A stretch of 64,000 nt of DNA, from contig JALNQF010000039.1 of the NCBI GenBank assembly GCA_028456385.1, positions 1-64,000 on the forward strand, in the 5' to 3' direction. Numbering within the stretch: the stretch's first letter is position 1; every line of letters begins with the position of its first letter. The position numbers and the translations under genes were made by a program. Source of the stretch: Ophiosphaerella korrae (Eukaryota > Ascomycota > Dothideomycetes > Pleosporales > Phaeosphaeriaceae). The notes below the pieces were generated by a model. That model saw only the letters and a list, made by a program, of their open reading frames with translations, ran no database searches and was not told where the DNA came from. Positions 6,547 to 59,010 of the stretch are shown piece after piece.

Positions 6547-6589
6547 TATTAAATACTTTTAAGATAAGTAATACGTTAATAAATATAGA

Positions 6590-11700: not shown

Positions 11701-12375
11701 GTATAATATACTAAGATATATAAGATATATAAAGCTATAGCTAGGATATAATAGATATATTAGTAAAAAAAAGTTCTATAATAAACCTAACTATAAAGAG
11801 CCTATAAAGCGCCCTTAGTTATAATAAACTTATCTAATAAGCTAATAGTAGACTAGATAGTAAGAGAGGAAGTAATATTAATAGTAGTAGTAGAATAGTT
11901 AAAAACTTACGCTAAGACCTTATTACCTTCTTACTCTAACTCTAACGCTAGGTATAAGGCCTTATAATAAGTACACTCTTTAGTAGATTTTAATATTTTC
12001 TTATTATATAGTAAATAAGTAATAATAATAGTAAAAAGTTTTTTATTATTATTAACTTTTTTATAAAACTTTTTATAAGTTTAATTAAGAGACTCTTAAG
12101 TTATACTAATATAAAGACGCTCTATATAAGTATACTTAGTATACTTTAGAGTAGAATCTAGTATAATAAAATAAAGAATACTTAAGAAAGAATAATATTA
12201 ATAAGGTGTTTTAGAAATATAGTTTATAGTAAAGATTTCTAATAAAAGATAAAGTCTATAAGACTATAAGAGAGGTAATATTATAGTAAGATAGTTTTTA
12301 ACTTAAAGGTAGAGTAAACTACTTATAAGCTAGACCTAGCTAATAGAGGCCTAGGCCTAAGGATAGACCTAGCGT

Positions 12376-12388
12376 AAGAAAAGGGGAT
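12376..12388 (+). other. Polypurine tract
   Basis: The purine run AAGAAAAGGGGA lies directly before the 3' LTR, at the position of a plus-strand primer for reverse transcription. Confidence 0.6.
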
Positions 12389-12390
12389 AG

Positions 12391-12833
12391 TATTATAATA
12401 CTAAGCGGTAAGTAAGCTATTATATTGTACGCAATTAGGCTAGGTAATATAGCGTAGTAGAATACGTAACTATTTAGTAGTAAACGCTCTAAAGTAAACG
12501 CTCTAGAGTAAACGCTCTAGAATAAGTACTCTAGAGTAAACACTCTAGAGTAAGCGCTTAGGAATAAACGCTAGATAGTAAGTATATAGGAACGTTAATA
12601 GACCTTTATAGACTATCGTATTTAATCTCTTCTTTACTTCTTATCCTAATAGAGTATTACAACTAATACTTTAATTAGATTCTTATCTACCTATTAATAC
12701 TTATATACCTTGTAATACTCTAATAAGAGCTAACTATTAATTAAGTTAAGTAACTAACTTGTTTATTAACCTTACCTATCTTATAGAAGCCTACTTACCT
12801 TTATTATTCTTACTTAGTTCTACGGACTTAATA
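12391..12833 (+). repeat. 3' LTR of first Gypsy element
   Basis: 443 bp, near-identical to 6118-6546 apart from RIP-type transitions and one extra 14-bp unit (five copies at about 12481-12551). It ends in TTAATA. Confidence 0.88.
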
Positions 12834-13019
12834 AATCGTTATACTCTAGTTATAATTTTTTAGCTAGATAGTAATAGCCTAACTAATTATATCTAAACTT
12901 ATAATAACTTTAGACGTAGAAGCTACTCTTATTATAAACCTAGTCTTATTAAAGTTATATATATCTTTATTAAGTATTCTATATACCTAGTACGTCTCTT
13001 ATATAAGCCTAAACTACGT

Positions 13020-13024
13020 AGTAA
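13020..13024. repeat. Target-site duplication AGTAA, left copy
   Basis: AGTAA sits immediately before the 5' LTR at 13025 and recurs exactly at 20052-20056 after the 3' LTR. A 5-bp duplication is usual for Gypsy integrases. Confidence 0.85.
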
Positions 13025-13467
13025 TATTATAGCTATAACAAGAAAAGACTAATTCGAACTAATTAGCCCTACTATATATAACAACAATACATATAATCTA
13101 TATAATAATAAACTAGACTAGGAAACTAACTATAATAGAGATACGTAATAAATTCGTAATTTACAATCTTAGTAAATACAAAGTATAAAGCTAAGTATAT
13201 AATAAATTTATAATTTACGATCTTAGTAAATACGAAGTATAAAGCTAGCTAAGAAGCCTAGGTATATAGTTAATAGTAATGCGTATTATTAGGATATTAT
13301 TAGTAATTTAATTATTAACTACAAGCGATAATATTTAGATAGTTGTAAAACATCTCTTATTATTTATAGTATATTATAGATTACTACACGAGCTTTTGTT
13401 ACTACTTTCTAATCTACTAATACCTCCTTAGGTACTAGGAAGTCGACCCTAGTAGCACTAGATTACA
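13025..13467 (+). repeat. 5' LTR of second Gypsy element, fully RIP-mutated
   Basis: 443 bp. It starts TATTATAGCTATAACA where the 3' LTR has the palindrome TGTTACAGCTGTAACA, and ends GATTACA. Differences from the 3' LTR are almost all C-to-T or G-to-A in this copy. Confidence 0.9.
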
Positions 13468-13529
13468 CCTTACTAATTTAGTTATTACAAGAAGCGAAGC
13501 GTAAGTAGCGCGCGGTCTAGCTAATATAA

Positions 13530-16500
13530 TAGTAGAAAGTTTAACAAGTAAAGCCCCTAAGAGTAGTTATAAGTTAGATAGTACTATATAAGAAATAATT
13601 AAGGATTATATAAATAAACTAATTAATAATAAAGAAGATATAAAAATAGTAATTAAAGCTTTAGAAACGTAGAATAAGGAACTATAAGACTACTTAAAGT
13701 AAAACAAAGTATAAATTAAAGCTATTATAGAAGGATAGAACTAGATAGAACTAATTACTTAATAACTAGAGATAAGTGCAATAAAGAAACTACTTAAAGT
13801 ACCTATCTTTAAGAAGTTTAATAGAATAAGGGAGAAACTAAAACTCTTTATAGTATTAGTATAACTCTAGATAGATATATAAGTACTATACTTTAATATA
13901 AAAGAAAAGAAGGTAATATATATTAGATTACACCTTAAAGAAGATATAATAAGATAGTATAAACCTTACTAGATAGACTATATAATATACTCTCTAATAA
14001 CCTAGAAGGACAAAACTAAAGCTATTTTTAGAAGTTATAAATACTTTACTAAACGAATAAGAGTAGTATTTAGAGATATAGATATTACCTAATAAGCTAA
14101 AGAGAAACTTAAGAAGCTTATATAAAGTAAAAGTGTTCCTAAATATATATTATAATTTAAATAACTAAGCTAAAATATAGAATAGAATAAATTAGCCCTA
14201 ATGTTATAATTTAAATAAGGACTAAACGTAAAAATCTAATACAAAATAATATATATAGAGAAACCTAAGACACTAGAAGCTCTAAAGTAGTAAGTAATCT
14301 AAATTAATAATAATCTTTAAGAATAGAAAAAGAATAAGTATAGTAACTAAACTAGAAACTAGGATACTAGAGACCTTATAATCCTTAACGCTAATAAGGA
14401 TAAAAAGAAGAAAAAAAACAAAGACTTTATATACTTTAACTATAGTAGGAAAGGCTACTACGCGAAAGACTACTAATTATAAAAAAAGAAGGATATAGTA
14501 TATTATAAATATAAGAAACTAAGATACTTTATAAAAGACTATAGAAGTAAAGACTATAAAAAAGATAAGGAAGCCTAGTTAAAGATAACTAAAAAGAAGA
14601 AAGAAGTAGTATAAGTATAGGCTAAACTCTATAAGAAAGTAGCTAGGAGTAAAGAACTATAATACGTAATACTCTATTAGACCTTTTATTACAAAGACAA
14701 CTACTATATATATCTTTCTAGTAAGTAAGAAGTAGGGTATTTCTTATAATAGAGAAATAAAGTAGTAGTAATAAAAGAAAGAATAAAAGTATAGCTAGAA
14801 GAAATAGTATATATAATAGACCTACTAATAAAAGACTTAGAAGAGAAAGAACCTTAGACTCTATCGATCTAGACTAAAGAACTAGCACTAGATAAAGAAA
14901 CTACTACAACTTCCTCTAAGAGACTATAAGGAAGTAAGAGATAAGTTAGTATAAAAGGTATAGAGTATACCTAGCTAGATATATATAGCTATAATAGCTA
15001 TATAACTATAGCTATAAAGGAACGAAATAAAGAATAGAGATTTGTTTAAATATACTTATTAGTTATAAGTATAGAAGAAGTATATAAAGACTATAAAGAA
15101 TATAATCCTAAAGAAATAAAGTTTATACTATTTTAAGAATAGATAAAATAATATATAGTTGTAGTAAGAAGGATACCTATATAAAAAGAATAGTAGTACC
15201 TTATAAGAAAAACGTAATAGATTAATAAAGCCTATATACTAAGAGTACTAGTAGTGTACTATATCCTAATAATAGATATACCTAGAAAAGATAAATACTA
15301 AGAAGAAGATAGTTAAATAACAAACCTAAAACATCTAGTATACTGTAAAGTATTATAGATATTATACCTAGATAAGAATTATATTATATATAGGAACCCT
15401 AAAGTAAATAATAGTATATAGCTTATAAGAAGAAGAGGCTATAATTATACAAGAGTAATTCTAGTAGAAGATATCTAAGGATAAGAAATAATCCTAGAAG
15501 ATAGATACTTAGTAGTAAGACCTAGATTAAAACTATCTAAGAAATACGTCTAAGGAGGACTATAGTACAAATACAAGTATAATAAATATCTAAAATACAA
15601 AGAATATAAACTTAAAGTAAGGCTATAGCCTTAGAAAGATAGATAATTTATAAAATTACCTAAGTAAGAAAAGCTAGAAGGTATAAGAGGCTTATATATT
15701 ATAAAAGTAGGTACTTATTAAAGAAAGAAAGTATAATTAATAATTAATAGTAGAGCTACAAGAAACTTTATATTAAAGAAGTTTGTAGAAATACAAGGAA
15801 TAAAGTATACTACAAAGAAATACCCTTAATAACTAAGTATAATTAAAGGAAAACTATTCTAGGAACCTATTAGGTTTAAAACAGTTTCCTCTATATTAGA
15901 ACTAGAGAGAATAATAATTAAGAATATAGTTATAGATATAACAACAATTAATAATAAACAAGATATAATACTAGGAATACTATAGTTGTAGATAACTAAC
16001 CTATATATTAATTAGAGAACAGGGAAGATTAATTACTATAGAATAGACATGTTAAAGGCTAATATAAATACTTGTAAAGGAGAATTCCCTAAAGAATATA
16101 AGAAATAGGAAAAGTAGCTTATAGAGCTAAAAGACTACCTTCTAGAATATTAGCTATAGGATTTAGTAATAGACTTAAAAGAAGATAAAGATATAAGATA
16201 GAGCCTAGTCTATAAAAAAATAGAAGAAGAATCTAAAATTAAATAAACATTTATTAAAAATATAATTAGAAAAAGATAGATATAAGAATCTAAATCTTTA
16301 GTAGTATATAAACTTATATTTATAGATAAAAAAGGAATAAGTAATAAAAGACTTTACGTAGATTTTAAAAAAACTAACGTAATTATAAACAAGAACTAAT
16401 ACCTATTACTATAAATAGACAAAATATAAGATAAGCTATAAAGAGTAAGAATCTTTATAAAACTAGATATCTAGAACGCCTACTACTAGATTAGAATTAA

Positions 16501-18960
16501 GAAAGGTAATAAGTAGAAAATAGTATTTAGAATATAATATAGACTATATAAATACTTAGTTATACTATTTAGATTAATAAACGCACTAGTAGTATTCTAA
16601 GAAAGAATTAATATAGTACTAATAGAGTACTTAGACGTATTTATATTTGTATACCTAGACGATATCTTTATATTCTTAGAAATAGAAGAAGAATACGTAT
16701 AATATATACATAAAGTGCTAGAAAGACTAATAGATAGTAAACTATTCTTTAAAATAAGAAAATATAAATTTTATACAAAAAAAATAGACTTCCTTAGATT
16801 TATTATTAAACTAGGAAAAATTAAGATTAACCTAGAGAAGATTAAATTAATTAACAAATAGCTAATACTAAAAAACCTAAAAGAGGTATAATAATTTTAT
16901 AGGTTAGCTAACTTTTATAGAAAGCTAATAGTAGGATAGTCTAAAGATATAGAACTAATAACAAGACTTATAAAGAAAGATACGCCCTTTAAATAGATAA
17001 AGGAATATAATAAAGTATTTAATAAAATTAAGAAAAAATTTATAGAAAACCTAGTTATTAGAATATATAACCTAGACCTACTAGTAATAGTAAAAATAGA
17101 TACATCTAACTTAGTCTATAGAATAGTACTAATATAGAAAGACCTAAAGACTAAGAAAGTATATTTAGTTAAATACTTCTCTAAGAAGATAAAAATAGTA
17201 GAACTTAATTACCTAATCTATAATAAAGAGATAGTAGTAATCTATAAAGTATTTAAATAATAGAGAGTATACTTATAAAGAGAAAAGTATTAGATAATAG
17301 TTTATGTAGACTATAAGAATCTTATAAGATTTATACTAAATAAGGAACTATTATAATAATATATAAGATAGTAGGAATTCTTATTAATATTGAATATAGA
17401 AATTATATATATAAAAGAGAAAGATAATTAGTTTATAGACGCCTTTAGTAGAAGACTAAACTTATAAGAAGAAGTAAGTACTACTAGTATAGTTCTAATT
17501 AAGAATAAAAAAGGATATTTAGTCCTAAATATACTTAAAATAGCTACTATACTTAAAAGAATAAGTAGTAAGCTAAATAAATAGATTTAGAAAATAATAC
17601 AAGAGGTACCTAAAGAAATAGAGAAGTTAGAAATCTAAGAAGGATTTATATAAGCCTATAGAAGAATATATATTCTAGGAAAAATCTAGAGAGAATTTAT
17701 ATAATAATTCTACGAGCTACTAGTATATAGATACTAGAGAATTAAGAAAATACTAAATAGGCTCCTAAAAGATTATTACATCCTAAGAGTAAGATAACTA
17801 GTAGAAAAAGTACTACAAGATTGTATAGAATATTATAGAAATAAGTATAATAGATACGTACTATATAGGATACTATAACTAGTTAAGGTACTAGAATAAC
17901 TTTAGAGAATAATAATAATAGATTTTATTATAAAGCTACCTAAGTTAAAGGACTTAATATTAGGAGTTAAGTATAATAGAGTCCTAATAATAGTAGATAA
18001 ACTTATAAAGTATATATACTTTATACTATATAAATAGAAAAGTAGAATAGAAGTTACTATATATTAAGTTCTAAAAACTATAATAAGCTAATATAGTATA
18101 CTAGACAAAATTATTATAGATAAAGATATACAATTTATATTAAAATTATAGAAAACAATAACAGCGTAATTAGAGATATAATATACTATATTAATAGTAT
18201 ATTATTTATAAATAGATAGATAATTAGAACAAATAAATTAGATAGTAGAATAGTACCTAAGATATTATCTTAACTACAACTAGAACAATTAGGTATAGCT
18301 ACTACCTATAGTATAGTTAGTATATAATAGCGTAAAGAATATAGTAATAAGAGTATTACTTTTCTTTATAAACTATAGACTTAAACTTAATATATATTAA
18401 ATACTAAAAAATATAGAATTATAGACCTTATAAAGAGAAAACTTTATAAACAAAATAAAAGAAATATATAACTAATTAAGATAGGACGTAGAATTCCTAT
18501 ATAATTAAATAGTAAAGTATTATAACAAGAAGTATAAATAGGGACCTTAATTTAGAGAGAGAGAAAAAGTATAGTTAGTATAAAAAAATATTAAGAGTAA
18601 ATAACTAAGCCTAAAATTAGACTATATTAAGATAAGACTATATAAAATTAAGAAAGAAGTTACACTAGTTATATTTAAACTAAAGCTACTAAATAAGATA
18701 AGGATATACCTAACCTTTTACGTAGTATTACTAGAACAAGTACTATAAGAAGTAGAACTACTAGTATACGAAGTAGACACGTATAGAGAATAGGAAGAAT
18801 AAGAAGTTAAAGAAATCTTAGTACACTAGTTTTATAATAGTAGAAACTATTATTTAGTAAAATAGATAGGTATAGACAAGAAAAGGCAACTATAAGAAGA
18901 AATATAGGAACTAGAGGATAACCTTAACTACCCTAAGAAACTAGAGGACTTCTAAAGTTA
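13530..18960 (+). pseudogene. Gag-pol-chromodomain remnant of second Gypsy element
   Basis: Degenerate but readable. Knuckle 1 at 14432-14473 (YFNYSRKGYYAKDY) and knuckle 2 at 14501-14542 (YYKYKKLRYFIKDY) keep the CX2CX4HX4C spacing with every Cys and His replaced by Tyr. Protease near 15745 reads INSRATRNFI. Reverse transcriptase at 16640-16675 reads FVYLDDIFIF with its two Asp intact. RNase H lies near 17050-17130, the HHCC-type integrase region near 17695-17850, and the terminal chromodomain (RNYYLVK*IGI) near 18840-18880. Many stops are TGG-to-TAG or CAR-to-TAR. Confidence 0.85.
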
Positions 18961-20473: not shown

Positions 20474-22492
20474 ATGGGTAGGGTTAGCTTAGGGTATGTT
20501 ACACCCCGACTACTCGCCGCACTGGCCAAGATGCTCCGCATCTTGGCCGTGGACGCCTCCTCGGTAACTACCAGCCGCAAAACGGATCTGTGGCTATTAT
20601 GCCTATGGCTGCGCAAAGTCTTCGGGCCGACGTATACCCTGCAGCCTTGCGATCAAACCGTATCGCACGTTCGCAAGAAGTACGATCAAGCAGGTAAAAC
20701 TCTGTTCGAGGATATAAATGCCTGGGTAGCCCTAACAGAGATCTTCACGGACGTGCTGCAGGACCTGAGCCTAAACACTACATCCCTAATCATTGACGCA
20801 CTAGATGAATGCGTTACCAACTTACCAAAGCTGCTCGACTTTGTGGTAAAGCAGTCATCTACGCCTTCTCGCGTTAAGTGGATCATCTCTAGCCGCAACT
20901 GGCCGGACATTGAGGAACGGCTGGAGCGGGCAGGCCACAAGGTGAGACTAAGCCTGGAGCTGAACGCAGAGTCTGTGTCAAAGGCTGTCAGCATCTTTAT
21001 CGAGCAAAAGGTATCTCAGCTGGCGCAGCAGAAGAAGTACAACGAGCGGACCCGAGACGCTGTACGAGCGCATTTAGTGTCGAATGCGAACGACACCTTT
21101 CTCTGGGTAGCGCTGGTATGTCAAGACCTCGAAGTGACGTCGAAATGGAACGTGCTGAAGAAGCTAAGTTTGTTTCCGCCTGGGCTAGACTTGTTGTACG
21201 GGCGGACGATGCAGCGGATCAACAAGTCGGACGATGCCAAACTTTGTAAGCAACTGCTGGCTTCGATTGCGCTCGTATACCAACCAATCACGCTAGAGGA
21301 GCTAGCGGCCCTCATCGAACAGCCTAAAGACATAGCTCACGACCCGGAATCAATACGGGAGATTATTGCCCTTTGTGGCTCATTCCTAATCCTACGAGAA
21401 GAGACTATTTACTTTGTACATCAGTCGGCCAAGGACTTTCTCCTCGCCAGGGCAGCTAAAGGAGTGTTCCCATCTGGAAGGGAGGATATTCATTACACTA
21501 TCTTTGCTAGGTCACTCGAAATTATGTCTAGGGCCCTACAGCGGGATATGTACGGCTTGGAAGTGTTAGGATATCCTGTCGAGGACATCGAACAGCTAGA
21601 CCCAGATATCCGTTAGCAGCATCGCGCTACTCGTGTATGTACTAGGTCGACCATCTACGCGACTCGAATCTCAAGTCTTTAGCGAGCTACATCGGTCTGC
21701 AGGACGGAGGTGTTGTTGATGTGTTCCTAAGGAAGAAATATCTCTACTGACTAGAAGCTCTTAGTTTGTACAGGAGCATACTGAAAGCCGTGGTCTCAAT
21801 GGCTGAACTACGGTCGCTGGTCCAGGTATGTTCTGATGCAACCTAATTAGATGTTTTTTTATGACACACGCTAGAGAAGAGGAGATACAGAACCGTTCAC
21901 TGAGCTTGTTCATGATGCGTATCGGTTCGTTATGTATCACAAGGGAGCAATCGAGAGTAGCCGTCTTCAGGCATATACATCTGCGCTGCTATTCAGTCCA
22001 ACAAAGAGTTTGATTAGAAGGTTGTTTCAGCACGAAGAGCCGAAATGGATCACTACCAAGGGCCACAGCAGCGTCGTCAACTCCGTGGCCTTCTCTCACG
22101 ACTCGACCCAGCTCGCGTCGGCGTCGCACGACGGCACGGTCAAGATCTGGGACGCGAGCAGCGGCGCGTGCTTACAGACGCTCGAGGTTGGCACAGTGCT
22201 CCGCAACATATCATTTGACACTACTAGTTCGTATCTACACACTGAAATTGGTGCTATTAGTATTAGCGCAACACCATTAGTTCTAAGTAGTACACCAACT
22301 GTCATAGAGCCTCAGAATCCTGGATATCAAGGCCTAGCGTTGAGTTCAGATAGGGTATGGATAACACACAATTCAGAGAACCTAGTATGGCTACCGTCAG
22401 AGTATCGGCCGTCATGTGCGGCGGTGATAGGGAAGAAAGTTGGCATTGGTGTTGGAAGTGGAAGAATGTGGATATGCCAAAGTTTAATTTGA
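20474..22492 (+). pseudogene. Truncated NACHT-WD40 (NLR-like) pseudogene
   Basis: The first frame (20474-21616) keeps the Walker B strand LIIDALDEC and the winged-helix part typical of fungal NACHT NTPases, but has no Walker A P-loop, so the N terminus is lost. At the 21600s the homologous frame shifts by one base. It then continues as LAASRYSCMY with a stop where Trp is expected, and LRKKYLY followed by TGA where the family has WLEAL. A 49-nt intron (21826-21874) keeps frame into a last exon with the family's FVMYHKGAIE linker, one WD40 repeat (GHSSVVNSVAFSHDSTQLAS) and the usual C-terminal tail, stopping at 22492. Two Trp-to-stop changes, one frameshift and the missing P-loop make it non-functional. 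A transposon end lies about 20 bp upstream. Such genes act in heterokaryon incompatibility. Confidence 0.85.
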
Positions 22493-26751: not shown

Positions 26752-26960
26752 AAGATGTGTTGTAGTAAAACTGCACGTGATCGGTGAGCACTGGGTTAGA
26801 GGCTCTATAGGTAGCCTTAAGTAGGATTGATAGGGCAGATAGCCACCGAAACCAACTCGTCAAGTAGCTACTCAACCCATATATTCTAACCCATCTCACC
26901 GACTACGGGTCGGTACCTACTCCCTACTTCTACGTGCATCCTAGTATGCCACAATATAGA
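26752..26960. mobile_element. MITE-like inverted-repeat element
   Basis: About 210 bp with terminal inverted similarity. The left side carries TGTAGTAAAACTGCACGTGA then CGGTGAGCACTGGGTTAGA (26782-26800). The right side carries TCTAACCCATCTCACCG (26885-26901) and ends CACAATATAG. There is no coding capacity. A related end, ATATTGTGGTGTAGTAGAAC followed by CGCACGTGATCGG, occurs at about 32018-32051. Confidence 0.5.
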
Positions 26961-29880: not shown

Positions 29881-32750
29881 TGATCTGAGTTCTTCCGGTA
29901 TATACTTTCTCTATTTTTATGTTGACGATAATATAAAAACGTGGTCTTCAGTGTCTACGACAAAACTCAGCTCTAATTCTTGATATTTACCTCGCTAGCA
30001 ATGACTGGGATAATAATGCGATCGAGGCAATCTAGGGCGTCACTTCGGCCCGTTTCTGCAACCCCGGTCCTAACGGGCTAGCGGAACGACACCAAGTTGA
30101 ACACTACGTTTACTAGGTGACGCAAATGCGGACTTTTCAAACGCAGACCCACGACTTATCCAAGCAAATCAGCTACACGCTTCTGTTTGGGAATACAGCA
30201 ATTACTTGCATTGGGACTAGGCAGGATATTCGGTACATTCATGCCGCTTCAATCGAACCGTCCTCGGTCTCGATTCTTACCTGATTTTGTAAGTGTGCAT
30301 GGCATAAACGATCCCACCTGACACGTACCATTAGACACTACTAGTTGCGAAATAGTGCTTCCTAGGGTTACATCCAACACATGCCTAGGAAAACAGGAGC
30401 CGTTCAGCTCGCGCGTGGGACAGACAGCTTTCACGGTCAATTAACCCACCAAACTGGGCAGACAAACAAGATTCATTAATATCAGCACTGCACCCATTGC
30501 TAGGGTAACAGTTAGCATGATTGTGGATACGAATATTTGTACTACCCTGCAAGTCAATCGCTGTCGCTGTGCATGACGTGATCTGACAATATTCACTATA
30601 ACCGCGCTCGGTGTATGAAAAGCCGGTAGCACTAGCCATAGGCGGCAGGTCGGTTAGCAGCATGTTAGGGAGGTGCGGGCCTTCTTACCATCGTGCTGAT
30701 CGGTAGAGCTTATAGTGTGGGTGTTAGCACAAGGCCGAAACATGTTGTACTCTCCTTTGGACTGGTATAGTTGGCATTGCAATCATATTATGTGTAGGGA
30801 TCGTAGTAGACAATTGTATAAAGATATTTCCATAACGAACTCCAGGTGTTCGGTAGACTTTCAGGTGATAAAAAGGCAAAGGTGACCAATAACACGCCCT
30901 TGTCTCGGCCTCCTGAGTGCACTGTACCCTTGTGGATGCTCATGAATACTTCTCTTGCCATGTAGCCGAGATCTAGATCAAGTTCTTAATTTCTGGCTTA
31001 ACTTATAGGCGGTGACTCAATATCCACCTTCCTAACTCGAGTTTCCACTTGTCAGTCGACCGATTTGATCAAACAATATCGAAAACTTGGTTAAGTATCT
31101 CTCACAGCAAGACCTTCTTCTACCTAGAATTTGAATTACCATAGTCTATCCATTTAGTTACCTTGGTTTATTCTGAGAACCACGGCATAGCCAAAGCACT
31201 TGATGTTCCGAAAATTCTAGCACGCATAATGAGAGTAAAAGCTCTTGTACTCCCTACACTCGCGCATTATGAGATTTCCAAATTCTGTTAAGAGAAAATG
31301 TTATTATATAAACCTGTTTAGAATTGAGATACATGTGAGGTGAATTAAAAGCCAGTGTGTCCAAGTCAGGCGGACACTGTTCATGTAGGAATTCAGGTTA
31401 CGCCCGCTTAAGCCAAGGCCGCTACATTAATACACAGACTGTTGCTATGTATCTGTGTCATGAATAATTCGCTAAGATTAATGTCGATCATCATCTTGTA
31501 TGACACACAGCCGATTGATCCACAAAGAGCGTAACTCCTAGTATTGGCGCCGTATCACGTAGGTTACGTCCCTGTTGCGATGACAAAGCGCCATGGTCAT
31601 GTTGAACAAGGCATGATGTCAGCATTACACTGAATTCTGACAAGAATCGAGGTTCATCGACTGTCAGCCCTGTTGTCATGGATGTGGCATCGGGACTGTC
31701 TATTGAGTTGTCAACTCAAGAATACGGTCACTGAACTAGGATGGATTAATATCCAAAGCTTAGGCCTAGAATTCACCACACATTTGATGTGCAATGTATT
31801 CATCTACTAGGTTCTAAAGGCCGAAAAACTAAACTCTTAAGATTTCAGCCTCTTTCGATATACTGATGAAGGGACCCATGGTCTCAAACTCTTTTAGCCT
31901 CTCTGCGGTCTATATCATTTTTTGTGGACAATATGAGACCACGCCAGGAGATTACATGGTAGCCTGTTATATTTCCTTTCCTAGGAGACCATCTGCGATC
32001 TCGCTACAATGCGCTGATATATTGTGGTGTAGTAGAACCGCACGTGATCGGGGAGGCTTAGGTCAGCCTTGCGGCTCTGCATGGGCTCCGGCAAGAGACC
32101 GGTACACTACTTGGTATAATTACCTCCTATCCACTTAACATTATATACAGTACCGTTCATACATTCCTGGGTAGGAAAAGACGAGGGTTTTCTTTCTATC
32201 CCGAATATTACTGACTTATTTTTAGTTTTCACGAGAGGTATCGATCACTTTTCAAGTATACACTGTGCACACCTGAACAATGTCGTACCTACTACTAGAG
32301 AGAGTTGTAATTCATAAGTGAATTCATCTTAAAGTACTGCTAGCAGAGTATATAACATCCGTCCATGTGTAACGGGAGACCTGCGGTGGCGGAACGCTAG
32401 TAGCACTTTCTATTATAACACCAACAACAATCGCATAGCTTAGATAACCTCAGAATGCATACTTAAGCTTATCAAAATCTTGTGCACTTGGTATCTTTAT
32501 CATAACATTCTTGCTGGCTTTGAAATACTACAATTCGCCGTTGACCTGTACGACGCTACTACCTCAGACCGCCTCAGACTTTCTTGAAGTTTCGTGCCTC
32601 TAAAAAGTTCCTCAAACTATAGATTACTACAGCAAGATTGTATCCTGAGCAGAACACTGTATTTAAACAACCTGGTCGCGCTGCAGCAGTAATCTGTTCC
32701 TGCATCACGGCCTAGCTGCATTCTAATAGTGTCGTCGTTAAGGCCAACAA
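29881..32750. other. Gene-poor stretch
   Basis: No confident gene. One 92-codon ATG frame on the minus strand (30385-30663) encodes a small protein with seven Cys (e.g. SEYCQITSCTATAI, NCYPSNGCSAD) but no signal peptide, so I do not call it a gene. The MITE-related motif at 32018-32051 is the only repeat seen. Otherwise nothing is recognised. Confidence 0.4.
32018..32060 (+). repeat. Solo MITE end
   Basis: ATATTGTGGTGTAGTAGAAC followed by CGCACGTGATCGG. About 28 of 33 bases match 26755-26787, and the ATATTGTGG start matches the reverse complement of the right end of that element. No partner end is visible nearby. Confidence 0.4.
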
Positions 32751-33374
32751 CAGCCACAGCTGACTCGTGTGAAGCAGCCCGTACCGCTCACATGATAGTC
32801 GGCGGCTTGCAATGTGCCGAGCGGCCGCGCTGGCAGTTTCTACGGCTGCCAGGTATATGGCGCTAGGCGTGATGTCGGCGCCGATAGCAGCTCGAACAAC
32901 AAGCGAGCGCCTTATTTAATGCGCTCAAGGCTGCTAATATCGCGGATAAAAATATTAGATCAGTTAATCACCGCTTCTCCTAGCTCTACTACAGCAAAAC
33001 CGTGCTGCCTCTACTTTCAAGATGCTACCCAGGAACTATCACAAAGGGTTTGTAGCTCGTAAGTTAGGTAGCTAGAGTATAAGTTAGAGGAGTAGTAATT
33101 AAACGCAGCAGATAGAATACGGTACAGTAGTTACTTATACTTGTATTTAAAACTACAGGGGTTCCTTTCAGCACCTTATTCATGTTTCAGGAAATATTTT
33201 CTTACTCAGTACGCCAACTATATAATATCTAATCAAGACTGTGCGGCCTTGTTGTAAACAAAGCAATGCTATACGCCCCAGAATTAGGGTTACAGAATTA
33301 TCCCCTAGATAGATTATGTGCTTGTATACTGCCGTCTCGTAGTTCTAATACTTAGGCAAAAGCTATAGAAAGTG
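32751..33374 (-). pseudogene. Inverted, decayed copy of the NACHT-WD40 3' end (left arm)
   Basis: The reverse complement aligns with 37806-38383: the last ~37 codons of the intact NLR plus about 470 bp of its 3' flank. Conserved stretches include ACGGCAGTATACAAGCACAT (intact copy ACGGCAGTACACAAGCACAT), GCACCTTATTCATGTTTCAGG (intact GCACCTTGCTCGTGTTTAAGG), GTAGTTACTTATACTTGTAT and CAGCTGACTCGTGTGAAG. The coding part has Trp-to-stop changes and indels. Identity by eye is around 70%. This copy and the intact one face each other around the nucleoside-phosphorylase/NLR pair. Confidence 0.7.
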
Positions 33375-34063
33375 GATGTCTAAGTTTACAGTGTTAGGCT
33401 TTCGATACCGCAGCCTAGCGAGATAAGCAAGGTTCAGCTGCAGGGAGGAGAAGAAGCGAAGATAGAAGCCTTGGTAGTAAAGGCAATCGCTGTGGTCACG
33501 ATAAACTTCTTACTAGCTGCTTCTGTTTCCATGGGTTTCCCAGCCTAAGGACTGTACGTAGATATTTGGCTAGGAAGGCCTGTTGTACGGGCTATCTTTG
33601 CAACTAACTTCTTCTCGTTTGAGCCTAATAGAGGCGTTGGACGATTATCCTTAGCTATCTCCCGTCAGTTCTAGATATATTGGGCCCTCTATATTCCGAT
33701 AACTATTACAAAGCTTGCTTTATGGTTGTAGTAGAGCAAACATTTGAGGCACTCTGGATCTAGATCTAGTGCCCTTGGTGCTAAAAACATTGCACTATGA
33801 GAGTAGGTATTAGATATTCATGAAGCAATATATAGTTGACTTGATAGAGGATATATTAAGGAACAAAGTAAAGTTCTGTTTTCGCGAAGTCGATTGGCCA
33901 TCGTAACGAGGCTGAAAAGCAGTCGGGCACTGCTGCCTCAGCTCTCTTTCGATCGCCTGCACCGACCATTGCTCGCTACCACCCACTGTCATCTGCTGCC
34001 ATCCACCGCCGTACATTACTTCCCATCTCTAGCAGTTGTCGCAAGAGCTACTTGCTAATCCCA
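33375..34063. other. Upstream region of the phosphorylase-domain gene
   Basis: No supported gene. An interrupted plus-strand frame at about 33475-33710 reads like protein (e.g. IWLGRPVVRAIFATNFFSFE) but has stops, so it may be a relic of an unidentified gene or transposase. The last 150 bp are pyrimidine-rich and probably hold the promoter and 5' leader of the following gene. Confidence 0.4.
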
Positions 34064-35161
34064 ATGGCCAGGAACCAACAGTTCACCATAGGATGGATCT
34101 GCCCACTCCCGCTAGAAAAAGAGGCCGCAAGGCTGGTACTAGATGAAGAATACCCGCAAGACAAGATTCAATACCAGAACGCATTCTATTTAGGCGGTCG
34201 AATTGGAAAACACAAGGTTGTTATTGGAGTGCAGCGAGGGATAGGACTTAGTCAAGCTGCCATCCTCGCTGAGAAGATGCGCGCTGGATTTCCCAATATC
34301 AGATACTTTCTCTTGGTCGGTATCGCTGGCGGCGTGCCTCACTACGGACCAGCTGGCGCGGCCTCGGAGATCGTGCTTGGGGACGTGGTTGTCAGCTATC
34401 CACGAGGCAAGCATGGTGGGGTATTGCAGTATGACAAGGGAGCGTGGGAGGGTGATGGGCGACTGAACTTTTGCGGATACACGAACGGTGTCCCTGGCGA
34501 CCTCATGGCCGCTGTCAATAACTTTCGTGCGGAAGGCCAGTCCAAGACGAACATCGCAGAAGTCTTGAGGCAGATGCGTCGCAAGCTTGACGAGAAGCGA
34601 CGGCACCAGTATGACGATCCCGGTTCTACCCACGACAGACTGTTCAAAGACGGATACGAGCACCAAGGCACTGAGCTTGACGACTGCGGAGTATGCTGCG
34701 ACGCAAGCTACATCGTCTCGCGTTCTGATCGAGGAGACGGAGCTACCCGATTAGTTGACGAACCGTTGGTCCATTTCGGTAACATTGCATCGAGCAATCA
34801 GCTGCAGATATCCGCTACCGAACGAAACAGAATTCAACGAGAGCACGAGGCCATCTGTTTTGAGATGGAAGCAGCAGGGGTGATGGGCGAGTATCCGTGT
34901 GTAGTCGTTCGGGGCATCTGCGACTATGCAGACTCTCATAAGAACAAGGGCTGGCAGAACTACGCGGCAGCTACGGCGGCAGCGTACGCTAAAGGGCTGT
35001 TGGCTATGATCCCCGGGATAGACGCTGCTAGTAGTGCGCAGTCTGCAGAACGGTCTTCACCTCAGCAGTCCCCAAACACACAAAACATTACGTTCGGCAA
35101 CAGCCACGATAGCATTCAGGCCGGGATCATTCATGGCAATATACAATTTGGACGACGTTGA
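34064..35161 (+). CDS. Nucleoside-phosphorylase-domain protein with amyloid-like C-terminal tail
   Basis: 365 aa in one exon from the ATG at 34064 (MARNQQFTIGWICPLPLEKE). It has the fungal PNP_UDP_1-type domain used as N-terminal effector in many NLR proteins: the TIGWICPLPLE start, a phosphate-binding-type glycine motif FLLVGIAGGVP (about residues 88-98), GDVVVSYPRG, the purine-site segment ICFEMEAAGVM, and the closing VVRGICDYADSHKNKGWQNY. The last ~28 residues leave the domain as a Gly/Asn/Gln/Ile-rich tail, NITFGNSHDSIQAGIIHGNI, resembling amyloid signalling motifs that couple fungal effectors to NLRs. The intact NACHT-WD40 gene starts 134 bp downstream on the same strand. Alternatives are an upstream exon of that NLR gene (no good donor seen) or a stand-alone nucleosidase. 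Confidence 0.82.
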   Translation: MARNQQFTIGWICPLPLEKEAARLVLDEEYPQDKIQYQNAFYLGGRIGKHKVVIGVQRGIGLSQAAILAEKMRAGFPNIRYFLLVGIAGGVPHYGPAGAASEIVLGDVVVSYPRGKHGGVLQYDKGAWEGDGRLNFCGYTNGVPGDLMAAVNNFRAEGQSKTNIAEVLRQMRRKLDEKRRHQYDDPGSTHDRLFKDGYEHQGTELDDCGVCCDASYIVSRSDRGDGATRLVDEPLVHFGNIASSNQLQISATERNRIQREHEAICFEMEAAGVMGEYPCVVVRGICDYADSHKNKGWQNYAAATAAAYAKGLLAMIPGIDAASSAQSAERSSPQQSPNTQNITFGNSHDSIQAGIIHGNIQFGRR

Positions 35162-35294
35162 GGTTTGGAACTTGGCTCGTAGCGGCTCAACAATGGAAAT
35201 TGATGTCAGAGATATTGCTGTGCACAATCAGTAGAGATTCACGTTGAAACTTGGAGTGCCAGTGATATAAAGCCACAACAAGGCTGGCGCATGC

Positions 35295-37914
35295 ATGCAT
35301 GCTTGGCCCTCAGCCTGCAGGCTGAAAGGCCACCAGGCTGAGGGCCAGCAACCGATACATGCGCTGCTGCAACGATGCCATGGCCTCCACGACAGCTTTT
35401 GGGAACGCGCATTCCAGTCTCCAGGCTCACACCATAAACGGCTCTGTCCACTTTGGTACGTTGCAGCATCACCCCCTGTCAATAAGAACGGGACGCTAAG
35501 CACACCTACGCTAGGACACGAGAACACGCTCAATCGTCTACCGTGCGCCAAAGACGCGCCCTTCAACTCGTACGCTAAGCAGCACGAGCCTGCCTGCCTC
35601 CCCGACACGCGCGTCGACCTCCTGCGCGAGATATACAGCTGGGCGGGTGGGCAAGACGAGCGGTGCATCTTCTGGCTCAGCGGCCTGGCAGGCACCGGCA
35701 AGTCGACAATCGCGCGGACCGTCGCGCGCACATACTACGACAAACAGCGTCTGGCGGCTAGCTTCTTCTTCTCGCGCGGCGGCGGCGACGTAGGCCATGC
35801 GCGCAAGTTTGTGACGAGTATCGCAGTGCAGCTCGCGCACAGCGTAGAAGCGTCGCGGGTGCACATTAGCAACGCTATTGCAGAGCACAGCGACGTTGTC
35901 AGCCAGTCGCTGCGCGATCAGTGGCAGCATCTTGTTCTCGGCCCGCTGTCGAAGCTGAACGAGCCAGGGCCATATGTTTTAGTCATCGATGCGCTCGACG
36001 AGTGTGACAGCGACGACAACATCCGTATCATCGTGCAGCTGCTGGCCGAGACGCCATCGACATCAGCGGGTGTTCGGCTGCGGGTGTTCCTGACGAGCAG
36101 ACCAGAAGTGCCGGTCCGGCACGGGTTCGGGCAGATAGCGGATACAGAGCACAAGGATGTTGTGCTGCACGAGATCACGCCATCGATCGTCGAGCGCGAT
36201 ATAGCTGCTTTCCTTGAGCACCACCTTAGGATCATCGCCAAGCAATGCTATCAGCATGCAGACTGGCCAGGCGCAGAAGTGATCAAGCTGTTAGTGCAGA
36301 GCGCAAGCGGCCTCTTCATCTGGGCCGCTACTGCTTGTCGCTTCATCCGAGAAGGCGGACAGTCTGTAGCTGACCGGCTGCGCGCTGTTCTCAGGGACAG
36401 CTCATCCAGCGAGGACTCTTGCACAGACGATCACTTAGAGGTTCTACCTAAAGAACGCTTAGACAGCATATACCTTACAGTGCTCGAGAGCCCCGTTCGC
36501 AGATACAGAAAGCAGGAAAAGAAGAAATGGTGCACACAGATAAGAGGGACGCTAGGGGCTATCGTCCTTCTGCAATCGCCGCTTTCTGCATCTTCGCTGG
36601 CTCGGCTACTCCGCGTTCCTGCAGAGGATGTTCATCGAACGCTACACGAGCTGCACTCTATCCTAGATGTCCCACAGGACCCGGACCGGCCCGTGCGTCT
36701 GCACCACCCTTCGTTCCGCGACTTCCTGCTCGATAGAAAGAGATGCGGTGACGATAGGTTCTACGTAGATGAGAAGAGCACCCACAAGAAGCTGGCGCGT
36801 CGCTGCCTTGAGCTCATGTCCGCGTCCAACCGTCTCCGACAAAACATCTGCAACCTTTCTACAGATGGGGTGCTAAGAAGAGAGGTAGACGAGAGCAGGA
36901 TTACGGCTAGCCTGCCTCCCGAGCTACAGTATGCGTGTCGTTACTGGGTTCATCATCTCGAGCGCGGCGAGTGCAGCATCGAAGATGGAGACGCCACGCA
37001 CCACTTCCTCGAGGAACACCTTCTTCACTGGCTCGAAGCTATGAGCCTAATCAATGAGACGAGTCTATGTGTGCGCTTAGTAGCAAGGTTACAATCGCTA
37101 GTGATGGTAGACCTTTCCTAGTGAAGTTATAGTCATTTTGCGCTAACTTAAGATACAGCCATCTAGTAGTACCGTTGCAAGTTTCCTCCACGATGCAAGT
37201 CGATTTTTGCTGCGATTCCTGCCCATTCTTGTAGAGGCGCCCCTCCAGATATACTCTTCGGCGCTTCTTTTCTCGCCTAACGCAAGCATTGTACAAGAGG
37301 TATTTATCGAGCAGGTGCCGCAGGCAGTGAAAGTACTTTCAGGGAGAGATGCAGATTGGGATGCATGCCGCAGCGTACTAGAGGGTCATTCGGATGCGGT
37401 CAGCGCGGTAGTGTTCTCGCCAGGCGGGCAGCTACTCGCCTCAGCATCTGACGACAGGACAGTGCGGGTGTGGGAGACAGCGACAGGACAGTGCCGCAGC
37501 GTGCTGAAGGGCCATTCAGGTTGGGTCAGGGCGGTGGTGTTCTCGCCAGACGTGCAGCTACTCGCCTCAGCATCTAACGACAGCACAGTGCGGGTGTGGG
37601 AGACAGCGACGGGACAGTGTCGCAGCGTGCTAGATCAGCCTTTACCTGTTTATCACATTGCTTTCTCGCTAGATAGCCAGTCACTCCAAACCAACAGGGG
37701 TGACATCTCTCTGCCGTCTAGTCTAATCGCTGTCCCCGCTATCCTACAAACCGAAGAACTTCCTTACACTGCAGTGGAGGGGGGGTGGATATTACGTCAA
37801 CAGCGGCGCTTTCTGTGGCTTCCTCCTGAGTATCGGGACTGCCTTACGGCAGTACACAAGCACATGGTTTGTTTAGGGTGTAGTTCTGGACGCATAGTAT
37901 TGCTTCGCTTATAA
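35295..37914 (+). CDS. NACHT-WD40 NLR-like protein
   Basis: Two exons, 35295-37106 and 37159-37914, joined in phase 0 across a 52-nt intron (GTAGAC...GCTAAC...ACAG), giving about 855 aa. Residues 1-75 are low-complexity and the true start is uncertain. The conserved part begins near LNRLPCAKDAPFNSY. The NACHT domain has a Walker A GLAGTGKST (about 130-138), a Walker B VLVIDALDEC (228-237), sensor-like LTSRPEVPVR and the winged-helix closing RLHHPSFRDFLLD. Exon 2 begins with the family linker FLHDASRFLLRFLPILVEAP, then two WD40 repeats of exactly 126 nt each (37367-37492 and 37493-37618), then the conserved tail ending CSSGRIVLLRL. The family is a STAND-type receptor system for heterokaryon incompatibility. 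Two repeats are few compared with HET-E/HET-D. No effector domain is visible N-terminally; the adjacent phosphorylase gene may supply it. Confidence 0.85.
35305..35346. repeat. Perfect 13-bp-arm hairpin at the NLR start
   Basis: GGCCCTCAGCCTG (35305-35317) and CAGGCTGAGGGCC (35334-35346) are perfect inverted arms around a 16-nt loop. The left arm also starts a 14-nt palindrome, CAGCCTGCAGGCTG. It lies in the ambiguous first codons of the NLR frame, directly after ATGCATGCATGC. Confidence 0.7.
37367..37618 (+). repeat. Two near-identical 126-bp WD40 units
   Basis: Tandem units of 126 bp, each encoding 42 residues, roughly 85-90% identical by eye. Differences cluster at the GHSDAV/GHSGWV and DDRT/NDST positions, which lie on the exposed face in WD40 repeats. 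Confidence 0.85.
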
Positions 37915-38383
37915 TAAGACGGCGCAGTTTTAAATAGACATCCTATAGCTCCTAAGTGAACAAATATTTTCCTTAAACACGAGCAAGGTGCTAAAGAGAT
38001 CCTCTGTGGTTTCAGGTACAAGTGCAAGTAACTATATCTACTTAGTTTATTTCCTACTCTTCTATACTACAGTTATAGAGCTGCTAACGCATTGTGATCG
38101 TTGCGAAGCGCTATCTTAAAGGTAGCACGCTTCAGCTACAGCAGAGCGAGAGAAAGCTCTAATTGATATCATGGTTGTCTCCACGTTCTACAGCCCTGAG
38201 CGCACTAGTACTAATTAATGAGATGCTCGCTCCTTGTTCGAGCCGCTATCGACGCTAAGACGCCACGCCCAGCGACATGCCTAGCAGCCGCAAGAATCCA
38301 GTAGCAGCGCTTCGGTACATTACGAGCCGCCAACCGTTAACGTGAATGTCACAAGACTTCCTTACACGAGTCGGTTGTAGCTG
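37806..38383 (+). repeat. Right arm of inverted repeat around the phosphorylase/NLR pair
   Basis: It covers the last ~37 codons of the intact NLR gene and about 470 bp downstream. Its reverse complement matches 32751-33374 with about 70% identity by eye, collinear along the whole arm. Confidence 0.7.
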
Positions 38384-39596
38384 ATGTCTAGCGCAGCTAG
38401 AATAAGGTTCTGTACACCAAGGATATAAGCTGTTGCTTAGCCGTGCGACTCGACCAAGCAACAAATCACTACCGCGGCGCAAACTAGCTCGCTGGAGACA
38501 GTAACTTGCCCGGTATACAATCTCTTTGTAGTTTTTCTATAGCTTAACGTGGTTTTGGACAGATGCAGGAAAGTTATAGGAGGCCTGAGGTAACAGCGCT
38601 ATGCAGCCTGACGGCCAATTGTAGTATTGTGAAGTAAGAATATCACGATAAGGATGCTAAGCTTACAAGTGGATAAGGGGCCAAGGTATCGATTCCGAGA
38701 TTGCCTACGCTATGCAGTTGCTGTTGGTGTTGTCAGGAGAGAAAGTGCTGTCAGTATTACGCTATGGCTGGTTTTCCGTTATGCATGGATGGACATTAAC
38801 CCTGAGTTAAACAAATTTCCATGCGTCTTTGATAGGATGTAGATATGCCTAGCAGCGTTTTATCTTCATGCTGACCGACTTGGATTTTTAGTAGTCTTCC
38901 TCGAGAGTATTATAAGGCCTTGGTAATTCACTCCTATAGGCTAGTCGTATCTCTTGTGAGAAATTGTACCCTGTATAAGCCTCTATAACATCAACTAACC
39001 TACCGTGACTACAAGTTGGGTGCTATGCGAAGTGTTTTATCTGCCAATCTTCAAGAATATCATAAGAGCTAGAGGATTAGATAGTGGTAGGCATTCTTGA
39101 TAAATGGTGCTTGCACGATCTCTGTTGCTTCGCCACTTATCTTATGTACCTAGGGCGCCCCAATGTACTAGCAAAGTTTCATTTCAAGCCTCACTATATC
39201 AAGATTGCTATAGCAGGATCACGACGACTACGACGCAAGCCATAAATAGACACCACACCCAAGCCATTTTTGGTGTACTTTAGATTGTGGCCTCTCTAGG
39301 CTGTTGCTAGTGAGTAGCGTTATTACCTTAAATCGGCACTAGAACAGTTTCGGGGTTAATTGTTTAGAAAAACCCCTGCAAATTACTTTGAAACCATGGC
39401 CTATCAGTCTTGGAAAGCATGTATAATATGAATTATATCGAGATATATACTGATAATATCTAATAAAGACAGATTAGCTCCACTGCAATGCCAAATCATC
39501 TCCCTAAGGGAATAGGGACTGGAGGTAATACTTGGACGCAAAAATTAAGAGAGTAGAATATAAGTTCTATCGACGACTATTTCCGGTTTCTCTTAT
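38384..39596. other. Intergenic, no gene seen
   Basis: Only a 62-codon frame (38654-38842) with no recognisable content. Composition becomes AT-richer toward 39400-39560. It probably contains the 3' end of the following minus-strand gene. Confidence 0.5.
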
Positions 39597-56788: not shown

Positions 56789-58140
56789 TTATATTACTGG
56801 GCTATACTGTTCGCGATTATAATAATCCAAATGTGCACTCTCCAAAGCCTGCTGTATACTCAATCGAAATTCTCCAGCGTCCCATCCCATCAGCCTTGCC
56901 ACAACGTTAACAAAGCGCGTGCGCCCTCGTCCGTCGTTGTACGCCAGACATTGATGAAACTGCTGTGATATGTATCGGAGGTGCGATGATGGACCCAGAG
57001 TTCGTGTAGAGGGCCTTCCGTTGTGATACTGAAGATTGCATTTGGGAGGTTCACATCGCAGTGCATCCAGTATGTTCAGTAGCGGACGCAGCACCGACAG
57101 TAGCCTGGTTCTGCGCACTGGCCATGTTACCCAACCCCTTCGCTTCAACGACAAGGAATGGAAAGTGAAGGCTGGTTCTTACGCTAAATGGTTCACTAAT
57201 AAGTCAACCGTCCTGGTGAACGTCGTCCAATAGTCTCTCGAGATGTATTGAAAAGGAAGAGTGAGACAGACCAACGCTAATACCAGGTTTGGGATTTGCG
57301 AGTGCATCCGGATCATCGTCAGTCGTATTCACAGATGCAGTGGCTATGGGTGCTGTCTCAGAAGCATCGGTCGAGGGAGATAGCACGACATTGTGGAAGG
57401 GATATACCGATGTGGTGACATCCTCAGCATCTCTCACCTCTTGGATTGAGCCCGTGGAAAGGGAGCGACCTGTATCAGGAGGCGGGGTTGGCTTAGGGCT
57501 ATGTAGCGCCGTAGCCGGAGTGTGGTAGGGTGTAGGAGGCAAACAGGCGGTGGAAACATAGACCTCTTCTGGGTGGCTCGGACCGGTTTAAGGTCAGCCC
57601 GCCAAGGCTTTTCTGACCCACTCGTCCTTCCCAGGCTTCTGAACGCCCGATAGCAATTCGCTTTTCCATTCCCCCTCTCCCGCAGTCTTCCTTGCCAGCG
57701 ATCGACAGCTATTTCTATAATCTAGCACTAGTCTCTCCATACAACTCTGCTGATCATCAAGAACTACATCCACCGGGCCTTCGTCGTTCAGTATCCCAGC
57801 GACGATTGAGGCAACATCTGGTGGCAGACCATGGCAATAATCTATGAAAATTCCTACCTCCTTCATGTAGATCTCGCGGTATTTGGTTGGTCGTTTGTTC
57901 GGATTGCAAGACCGCTTGCGCAATTTACTCCCCCGTCTCGTTTGGCCGTCCGCCCGCCTTCCCCTCCGGCTCTCTGCCGTAACGTATGCGTATTCGGACT
58001 CATTGTCGGTATCAGCTAGTCCCTCTTGGGGAGGGTTAGCCTCAACTAGAGTGCTACTCCAATGGAGAATCGAGAGGTCACGCGCGCCTTGTAGCCTTGT
58101 GTGCGTGTCACGGATGTCGTTTTCGAACGGTAAGATTACC
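56789..58140 (-). pseudogene. Broken nuclease-fold-like gene (PD-(D/E)XK suspected)
   Basis: Minus-strand sequence reads as one protein when frame changes and stops are ignored. From about 58140: LSILHWSSTLVEANPPQEG, KRPTKYREIYMKEVGIFIDY, a segment ending VRKALAG followed by two in-frame stops (TGA and TAA, consistent with CGA and CAA hit by C-to-T), then TGPSHPEEVYVSTACLPPTP. After HLERLLDDVHQDG comes another TGA, then HFPFLVVEAKGLGNMASAQN. That E-x-K context with Gln/Asn-rich helix is the core of a fungal family I take to be restriction-endonuclease-like. The frame then changes twice: LLNILDALRCEPP, then AIFSITTEGPLHELWVHHRT in the third frame. The fold assignment is tentative; the pseudogene status is clear. 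Confidence 0.7.
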
Positions 58141-58290
58141 TGACGACGTTTAGGAGAGCGTGGATAAGAACTGGACCGTGATGTTATATCGGTTTAACAA
58201 AACGCACGCTTCATTATAATAAATGCGAGCAACAAACTCAAAGTGGAACGGCGAAGCCAGGCACTGATATAACCTAGGCGGACTCCCGGT

Positions 58291-58600
58291 TAACGTGTTT
58301 ACTCACCACCCGGGCCACCCCACAACCCGGGCCTGCTCAAAAACTATACGTTAATATCTCAACAACGACCATCTAATAAATTCCAAGATTTTATAATAAG
58401 TCTTGCATACCTACTTTGAGCCTCCTACAAAATTACTAGGATAATAGGCCTAGCTATTATTACGTTATTAGGTTTTGGCCAGTTTCAGCCCCCAATTTTA
58501 AGCTAAATTGCTGTACCCCCAGAACTGTTTAGCAAATTACCTTCTAGGGGTCTTAACATGGTCGTGCGAAGGTAGCTACAAAGTTTCAAAACACCTGATT
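58291..58600 (+). mobile_element. Tc1/pogo-like transposon terminus, relic
   Basis: Starts TTAACGTGTTTACTCACCAC followed by a GC-rich CCGGGCCACCCCACAACCCG, and continues into an AT-rich leader-like stretch. The terminus is the inverse of 20401-20453. A TA precedes the ACGTGTTT end. No transposase and no second terminus nearby. The right limit is unknown. Confidence 0.45.
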
Positions 58601-58759
58601 TCTCCACATTCTGTATAGCTGATGGGTTCAAGTTCAGAAGCGAGATGCTTGGCATCATATCTATCATATATCTTAAAGTAGTCTTTAAACAGTAGGCAGA
58701 GTTACGGTCTATTTAGAGTATATACTCTCTACCCTCGTTAAGAATATTGATCAACAATA

Positions 58760-59010
58760 GATGGAATAGGTCTTGGACTAGCGACAAGATTCCGATCATC
58801 TACATCAAGGGTTCTAATAGTTAGATACATGTCGGCGCTGCAAACAAAAGTGAATCTGCTAATTACGTCACTATTTCCCACGTCTGGGTCGACGGTCTTG
58901 GAGGCTCGACAGAGAAGGGGCTCCTAGAGTGCTAGGTCAAGCGCCTCTACCACCTTGTAAGAAAGTTAACGAGCACTCCGAGCCAGGGTTGGCGTTGCGC
59001 TAACATGGCG
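58760..59010 (+). pseudogene. HET-domain gene relic
   Basis: From 58861 the plus strand reads NYVTISHVWVDGLGGSTEKG then LLEC*VKRLYHLVRKL. The HVW.DGLG box and the following CQ..RL pattern are the opening of the fungal HET (heterokaryon incompatibility) domain; the stop replaces the usual Gln (CAG to TAG). The upstream IPIIYIKGSNS is also interrupted by TAG. No continuation to a LDTLC-type box is readable, so it is a fragment, probably C-terminally deleted. It lies between a transposon end and the peroxygenase gene. Confidence 0.6.

What the first reader, a model, noticed from the sequence alone, without database searches (positions are those of the whole stretch)
32751..38383. Inverted repeat flanks the phosphorylase/NLR cassette
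About 600 bp on the left (32751-33374) is the reverse complement of 37806-38383, which is the NLR 3' coding end plus its 3' flank. A second NLR copy once lay in opposite orientation upstream and has decayed to its tail. The conserved non-coding part is as well kept as the coding part. Such a structure could invert the cassette, seed double-stranded RNA, or mark an ancient duplication targeted by RIP.
Basis: seen in the sequence. Interest (0 to 1): 0.75.

Follow-up and report, generated by a model that had tools for sequence, protein, structure and literature searches.

The report
Fossil inverted copy of NLR gene's tail
Upstream of a fungal immune-receptor gene lies an old, broken, back-to-front copy of that gene's last hundred bases and the DNA just after it, a decayed leftover of a past duplication that most likely does nothing now.

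Summary
The inverted repeat is real and longer than reported: 37809-38798 (+) against 33372-32353 (-), about 1.07 kb, 63% counting gap columns, 72% over 946 aligned bases; score 567 against at most 49 in 200 shuffles. Only 106 bp is coding (the NLR's end); the rest is 3' flank. Homology stops abruptly at both ends, so a breakpoint cut the left copy off; it did not fade by mutation. The coding remnant has two stops. C/T differences between the arms are enriched at CpA (odds ratio 2.6), as light RIP on both copies would give. The outer 0.3-0.4 kb belongs to a low-copy dispersed repeat, present also beside RIP-wrecked NACHT remnants on two other contigs, and the duplicated segment ends within about 35 bp of where some other copies of that repeat end. 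With 28% mismatches, many indels and no aligned exact run over 12 bp, an inversion switch is very unlikely and long perfect dsRNA is ruled out. Best reading: an inert fossil. The "cassette" is two genes, a nucleoside phosphorylase and an NLR, with matching amyloid-like motifs, a pairing already described in fungi. Ordinary in kind.

The parts
32353..33372 (-). Left arm: truncated inverted copy of the NLR 3' end (about 100 bp of coding remnant, two stops in frame) plus its 3' flank; similarity to the dispersed repeat continues to 32326
37809..38798 (+). Right arm: last 106 bp of NLR coding sequence (stop ends at 37914) plus 3' flank
37915..38440 (+). Inner flank of right arm: found in the two arms only, within the limited sensitivity of the genome DNA search and the loci compared
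38515..38798 (+). Outer flank of right arm: part of a low-copy dispersed repeat also at contigs C212 and C255
   Evidence: alignments
32326..32698 (-). Outer flank of left arm: same dispersed repeat, 69% to C212 and 68% to C255; parts of it above shuffles also in C462, C63 and C396
33373..34063 (+). Upstream region of the phosphorylase gene between left arm and ATG; no other copy found in the genome, no NLR homology found
34064..35161 (+). Phosphorylase gene (PNP_UDP_1), 365 aa, open frame without stops; C-terminal motif FGNSHDSIQAGIIHGNIQFG at 35093-35152
35380..37914 (+). NLR gene, 807 aa as predicted: exons 35380-35455, 35515-37106, 37159-37914; N-terminal motif FGNAHSSLQAHTINGSVHFG, NPHP3_N/NACHT, WD40 (two matched stretches), C-terminal tail

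Best explanation
An inert genomic fossil. At some time a contiguous segment (at least the last 106 bp of the NLR coding sequence, about 0.53 kb of flank not found elsewhere and a 0.3-0.4 kb low-copy dispersed repeat) was duplicated in inverted orientation; the two copies now lie 4.4 kb apart, the broken one in front of the phosphorylase gene. Both copies then took light C-to-T hypermutation of the RIP type, plus ordinary substitutions and indels, until they were too different to be recognised as duplicates. The right copy remains as the end of an NLR gene with open frames; the left copy has no function. Shown: homology, extent, sharp ends, stops, CpA bias, dispersed repeat. Inferred: RIP as the cause of the bias, which copy is the older, absence of function.
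For: Collinear inverted match far above shuffles. Inner flank shared only by the two arms in what could be compared: the right arm matched 16 of 30 paralogous loci examined (some overlap), and no such alignment passes 37917. Two stops in the coding remnant. C/T differences at CpA 58 of 107 against 71 of 227 elsewhere, odds ratio 2.6, p=5e-5; p=8e-4 with conserved T sites added to the denominator. TA/AT index 1.46-1.47 in both arms against 0.95 and 1.07 in adjoining stretches and 0.72-0.84 in the phosphorylase and NACHT exons. Abrupt ends. Identity differs little between coding and non-coding parts, as expected without selection on the pair.
Against: The CpA bias is unpolarised and modest; another AT-directed mutation bias could mimic it. 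The TA/AT index is also raised in the WD40 exon (1.18), the phosphorylase upstream region (1.26) and the window stretch 58001-59000 (1.30), and the (CA+TG)/(AC+GT) index of the arms (0.99-1.02) is only mildly low, unlike the hard-RIPped first 18 kb (0.02-0.20). Lack of function cannot be shown from sequence. No orthologous locus DNA was available, so age and direction are untested. One weak 76-bp match of the left arm (33007-32932) to the C335 NLR locus (64%, E=0.007) is left as probable chance.
Confidence: 0.85

Rival explanations
1. A whole second NLR (or phosphorylase-NLR pair) once stood head-to-head with the present one and a deletion removed everything but its tail. (An account of origin within the fossil reading.)
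For: The genome holds many relatives of the WD40 exon (220 matches, 149 of 427 candidates scored; WD40 matches need not all be NLRs, but the three loci fetched have NACHT regions) and NLR wreckage, e.g. 20786-22468 in this window and C212/C255. NLR clusters and RIP-inactivated NLR pseudogenes are described (PMC12258605 and PMC1805685, passages seen).
Against: No clear trace of the remaining NLR or phosphorylase beside the left arm; needs an extra deletion.
Confidence: 0.35
2. The dispersed repeat took part: a copy of it moved or broke at its end and carried neighbouring NLR sequence with it, as in transposon gene capture or retrocopying of a read-through transcript truncated at its 5' end. (An account of origin within the fossil reading.)
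For: The duplicated segment ends within about 35 bp of where some other copies end: in L038 (C212) coordinates the right arm ends at 1820, the left arm at 1843, C462 at 1822, C298 at 1853, and a sequence shared with C790 starts at 1819. C462 and C298 share that end and differ at the other.
Against: No target-site duplication of 6 bp or more was found at the left arm, and no poly(A) was seen by eye. C212, C255 and C63 continue past that end, and C396 has only the opposite end of the repeat. The right arm aligned to C396, C462 and C298 only at noise level; the left arm aligned to C462, C63 and C396 above shuffles but not to C298. The repeat has no identified transposase or class.
Confidence: 0.3
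3. The arms allow inversion of the cassette by recombination.
For: Inverted repeats in principle permit it (general knowledge).
Against: 72% identity, many indels, longest exact aligned run 12 bp.
Confidence: 0.02
4. The arms form a regulatory hairpin or antisense RNA.
For: 300-base arms joined by an artificial loop fold at -261 kcal/mol against a mean of -134 in 20 shuffles; runs of up to 24 pairs if G-U is allowed.
Against: Only imperfect pairing, which homology alone gives; needs a transcript through 5 kb or from the left arm; no Rfam match at gathering thresholds in the window.
Confidence: 0.03

Closest known systems
RIP-inactivated NLR (NWD) pseudogenes of Podospora anserina (PMC1805685, passages seen)
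   Same: Dead NLR copies with C-to-T mutation biased to CpA; one of the pseudogenes is preceded by a transposon relic
   Different: Here only the gene's tail and flank are copied, inverted, and the RIP-like signature is light
Phosphorylase (PNP_UDP) / NLR gene pairs with matching amyloid signalling motifs (PMC9815663, passages and sections 20 and 25 read)
   Same: Adjacent genes, phosphorylase with C-terminal and NLR with N-terminal version of one short motif
   Different: The motif here does not literally match the printed PUASM pattern FxGxGxQxxGxGxF; it may be nearer the phosphorylase-associated HRAM-like class, which was not tested

Membership tests
RIP-affected duplicate | C-to-T changes concentrated at CpA | tested here: met
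   odds ratio 2.6, p=5e-5 (8e-4 with the wider denominator), unpolarised
RIP-affected duplicate | Strongly depleted CpA/TpG and low GC in the duplicate | tested here: inconclusive
   TA/AT raised to 1.46-1.47, (CA+TG)/(AC+GT) only 0.99-1.02, GC 0.44-0.46
RIP-affected duplicate | Copies over 80% identical and, if linked, over 400 bp when hit (threshold seen in a passage of PMC1805685) | not testable with these tools
   now 72% over 946 aligned bases; past identity unknown
TIR transposon with the NLR as cargo | Closely similar terminal repeats (recalled criterion) | tested here: not met
   72% identity; the arms include NLR coding sequence
TIR transposon with the NLR as cargo | Target-site duplication at outer ends | tested here: not met
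   no shared word of 6-8 bp between 32290-32360 and 38780-38850
TIR transposon with the NLR as cargo | Other copies of the whole unit in the genome | tested here: inconclusive
   none found, but the DNA search is of limited sensitivity: it missed the partner arm
Amyloid-motif phosphorylase/NLR pair | Same short motif at C-terminus of one gene and N-terminus of the adjacent NLR | tested here: met
   11 of 20 identical, score 66 against max 52 in 2000 shuffles; by an ad hoc pattern, motif-like N-terminus in 8 of 120 listed NLR homologs and C-terminus in 37 of 120 listed phosphorylase homologs
Amyloid-motif phosphorylase/NLR pair | Recognised by a curated motif model | tested here: not met
   no Pfam match for three motif peptides (E up to 10); of six homologs scanned, three match NACHT_sigma (one above its cut-off) and one matches Ses_B above cut-off
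Amyloid-motif phosphorylase/NLR pair | The motif forms amyloid | not testable with these tools
   needs the peptides

The most novel reading that the evidence does not exclude
A low-copy repeat has repeatedly picked up or broken NLR genes: here it carried the NLR tail to a new inverted site, and on C212/C255 it lies directly after a NACHT remnant, so NLR birth and death in this genome is partly driven by one small element.
Probability: 0.12. Interest if true: 0.4.

Novelty: new member of a known kind. Interest (0 to 1): 0.17.

Why it matters
It records how an NLR locus in a fungus with RIP-like mutation gains and loses copies: duplication, light hypermutation, divergence below the recognition limit. 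It matters little by itself. The phosphorylase/NLR pair between the arms is the biologically interesting part, and it is of a kind already described.

Tried and rejected
Active transposon with the arms as terminal repeats: rejected (72% identity, no target-site duplication of 6 bp or more, arms include coding sequence). tRNA or known RNA family: none in the window. 3' flank shared by NLR paralogs in general: not seen; the right arm matched 16 of 30 loci, and all those alignments stop by 37917. Inverted tail copies at other NLRs: none in three paralogous loci compared with themselves; too few for a general statement. NACHT remnant at C462: not supported (score 40 against shuffle mean 43.5), although permissive BLAST suggested a long match; many permissive matches among RIPped AT-rich loci are composition noise. 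C396 as a full copy of the repeat: about its first 142 bp only; the rest is a different, abundant repeat. Profile search of the whole genome for the repeat: not possible (model R1 stayed unused). Papers on an inverted NLR duplication in fungi: searches gave 4 and 5 papers, of which I saw listings only; none was evidently on this point.

Full report
The observation. Self-comparison of the window shows one long inverted match, 37809-38793 against 33372-32358 (63.25%, E=1.7e-29), which milder scoring extends to 38798/32353. Over 946 aligned base pairs 72.3% are identical (173 transitions, 89 transversions); the score of 567 compares with a mean of 34.5 and a maximum of 49 in 200 shuffles. Only 106 aligned bases are coding; identity is 75.5% there, 73.7% in the inner flank and 69.4% in the outer flank.

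What lies between the arms. The 'cassette' is two genes. A 365-aa nucleoside phosphorylase (34064-35161; PNP_UDP_1) has close homologs: the best is 85% identical over its whole length, and two others are 86-87% identical over 98 and 87% of it (120 of 6785 hits listed). Among the named ones, Macroventuria anomochaeta, Paraphaeosphaeria sporulosa and Bipolaris maydis are Pleosporales, so the window probably comes from that order or near it (inference); not all named homologs were checked. The NLR is predicted at 35380-37914 with two short introns, 35456-35514 and 37107-37158 (a donor at 37101 would also keep the frame). Its start is matched by relatives that begin MASTT or MVSTT (P0132, P0158, P0126), and five of the 120 listed homologs (P0126, P0132, P0147, P0151, P0158) cover all of it at 61-69% identity. 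The end of the phosphorylase (FGNSHDSIQAGIIHGNIQFG) and the start of the NLR (FGNAHSSLQAHTINGSVHFG) share 11 of 20 residues; score 66 against at most 52 in 2000 shuffles. Such motif-matched phosphorylase/NLR pairs are described as amyloid signalling pairs (PMC9815663, passages and sections 20 and 25). No Pfam model matches the motif peptides, and the motif's class is untested.

What the arms are. The left arm's coding remnant has two stops. Homology ends abruptly: the continuation inwards of 33372/37809 scores 27 against a shuffle mean of 25.2 (max 41), and outwards 34 against 28.7 (max 42). The tblastn of the three exon frames against the window shows no further NLR sequence beside the left arm; it does show a degenerate NACHT-WD40 stretch at 20786-22468 on the + strand. 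A DNA comparison of 34064-37808 with 31000-33372 gave 41 against a maximum of 40 in 40 shuffles (reverse complement) and 40 against 42 (forward); I take both as noise, though the first sits just above its controls. A gene that faded by mutation would not stop so sharply while flank of the same age is still 70-74% alike. So a breakpoint, either of the original copying or of a later deletion, made that end.

The flank. The inner 0.53 kb was found only in the two arms, within the limits of those searches. The outer part is a low-copy dispersed repeat: 32326-32698 matches C212 (69%) and C255 (68%), and 38536-38798 / 38515-38798 match C212 and C255 at 63-65%. Searched on its own, 32110-32760 finds C212, C255 and a short piece of C63. 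On C212 a RIP-wrecked NACHT remnant (two stretches spanning residues 78-491 of the NACHT frame, E=3e-42, with stops) ends just before the repeat, and on C255 a shorter one (residues 412-500, E=1e-8) does so. C462, C396 and C298 share parts of the C212 repeat above shuffled controls (218 vs max 62, 112 vs 54, 73 vs 51), and C63 shares 1703-2100 of the C212 query at 93%. Tested directly, the left outer flank scores above shuffles against C212, C255, C462, C63 and C396 (174, 162, 65, 66, 48; shuffle maxima 29-35) but not C298 (22 vs 30); the right outer flank is at noise against C396, C462 and C298 and just above it against C63 (36 vs 33). The right arm, left arm, C462 and C298 part from C212 within about 35 bp of one another, and a sequence shared with C790 begins at the same place. 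That coincidence favours some involvement of the repeat in the duplication. It is not proof: C212, C255 and C63 run on past that end, and I found no target-site duplication of 6 bp or more.

RIP. The window's first 18 kb are hard-RIPped (GC 0.21-0.26, (CA+TG)/(AC+GT) 0.02-0.20). The arms are not of that kind, but their TA/AT index is 1.46-1.47 in both, against 0.95 and 1.07 in adjoining stretches; the WD40 exon (1.18), the phosphorylase upstream region (1.26) and 58001-59000 (1.30) are raised too. C/T differences are concentrated where the next base is A: 58 of 107 against 71 of 227 (odds ratio 2.6, p=5e-5; p=8e-4 with the wider denominator). This fits light RIP on both copies. A passage of PMC1805685 gives the RIP limits as over 80% identity and over 400 bp for linked copies, so these arms would now escape it. 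The test is unpolarised.

Function. Inversion needs long, closely similar arms (general knowledge); the longest exact aligned run here is 12 bp. For RNA, runs of up to 24 pairs exist if G-U is allowed, and an artificial hairpin of 300-base arms folds at -261 kcal/mol against -134 for shuffles; this is what homology gives and shows no use. I conclude: inert fossil, confidence 0.85; a whole lost NLR (0.35) and repeat-assisted copying (0.3) are competing accounts of its origin within that reading, and plain segment copying takes most of the rest.

Limits. The whole-genome DNA search misses distant copies (it did not find the right arm with the left). No orthologous DNA from related fungi could be searched. 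The species is not known to me.

Noticed in passing
35093-35152 and 35398-35455: Matching amyloid-like motifs at the end of the phosphorylase and the start of the NLR; of six phosphorylase homologs scanned, three carry a NACHT_sigma match (one above cut-off) and one a Ses_B match at their C-terminus instead, so the C-terminal motif looks exchangeable.
   Followed up: partly
32014-32102: Dispersed short repeat: at least 40 places in the genome match up to about 75 bp at 85-100% identity (40 of 135 candidates scored), apparently spared by RIP; no tRNA or Rfam match; a 33-bp partial copy at 26756-26788.
   Followed up: partly
20786-22468: Degenerate NACHT-WD40 remnant on the + strand next to the hard-RIPped region.
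   Followed up: no
1-18000: Hard-RIPped AT-rich repeat landscape, GC 0.21-0.26.
   Followed up: no
37366-37631: WD40 coding repeats 88.6% identical at a 126-bp offset; the repeat number may be collapsed in the assembly.
   Followed up: no
L036:426-522 and L036:7199-7295: Another NLR locus (C833) is flanked by a 97-bp inverted repeat, 92.8% identical; a third copy lies at another locus with an NLR-like match (L021, 86%).
   Followed up: no
L044:233-493: Open frame with a HET domain (PF06985, E=7e-6, above cut-off) on C255, about 1.3 kb beyond the repeat that follows the RIP-wrecked NACHT remnant.
   Followed up: partly
62198-62342: 76-bp direct repeat at a 69-bp offset, 80% identical.
   Followed up: no
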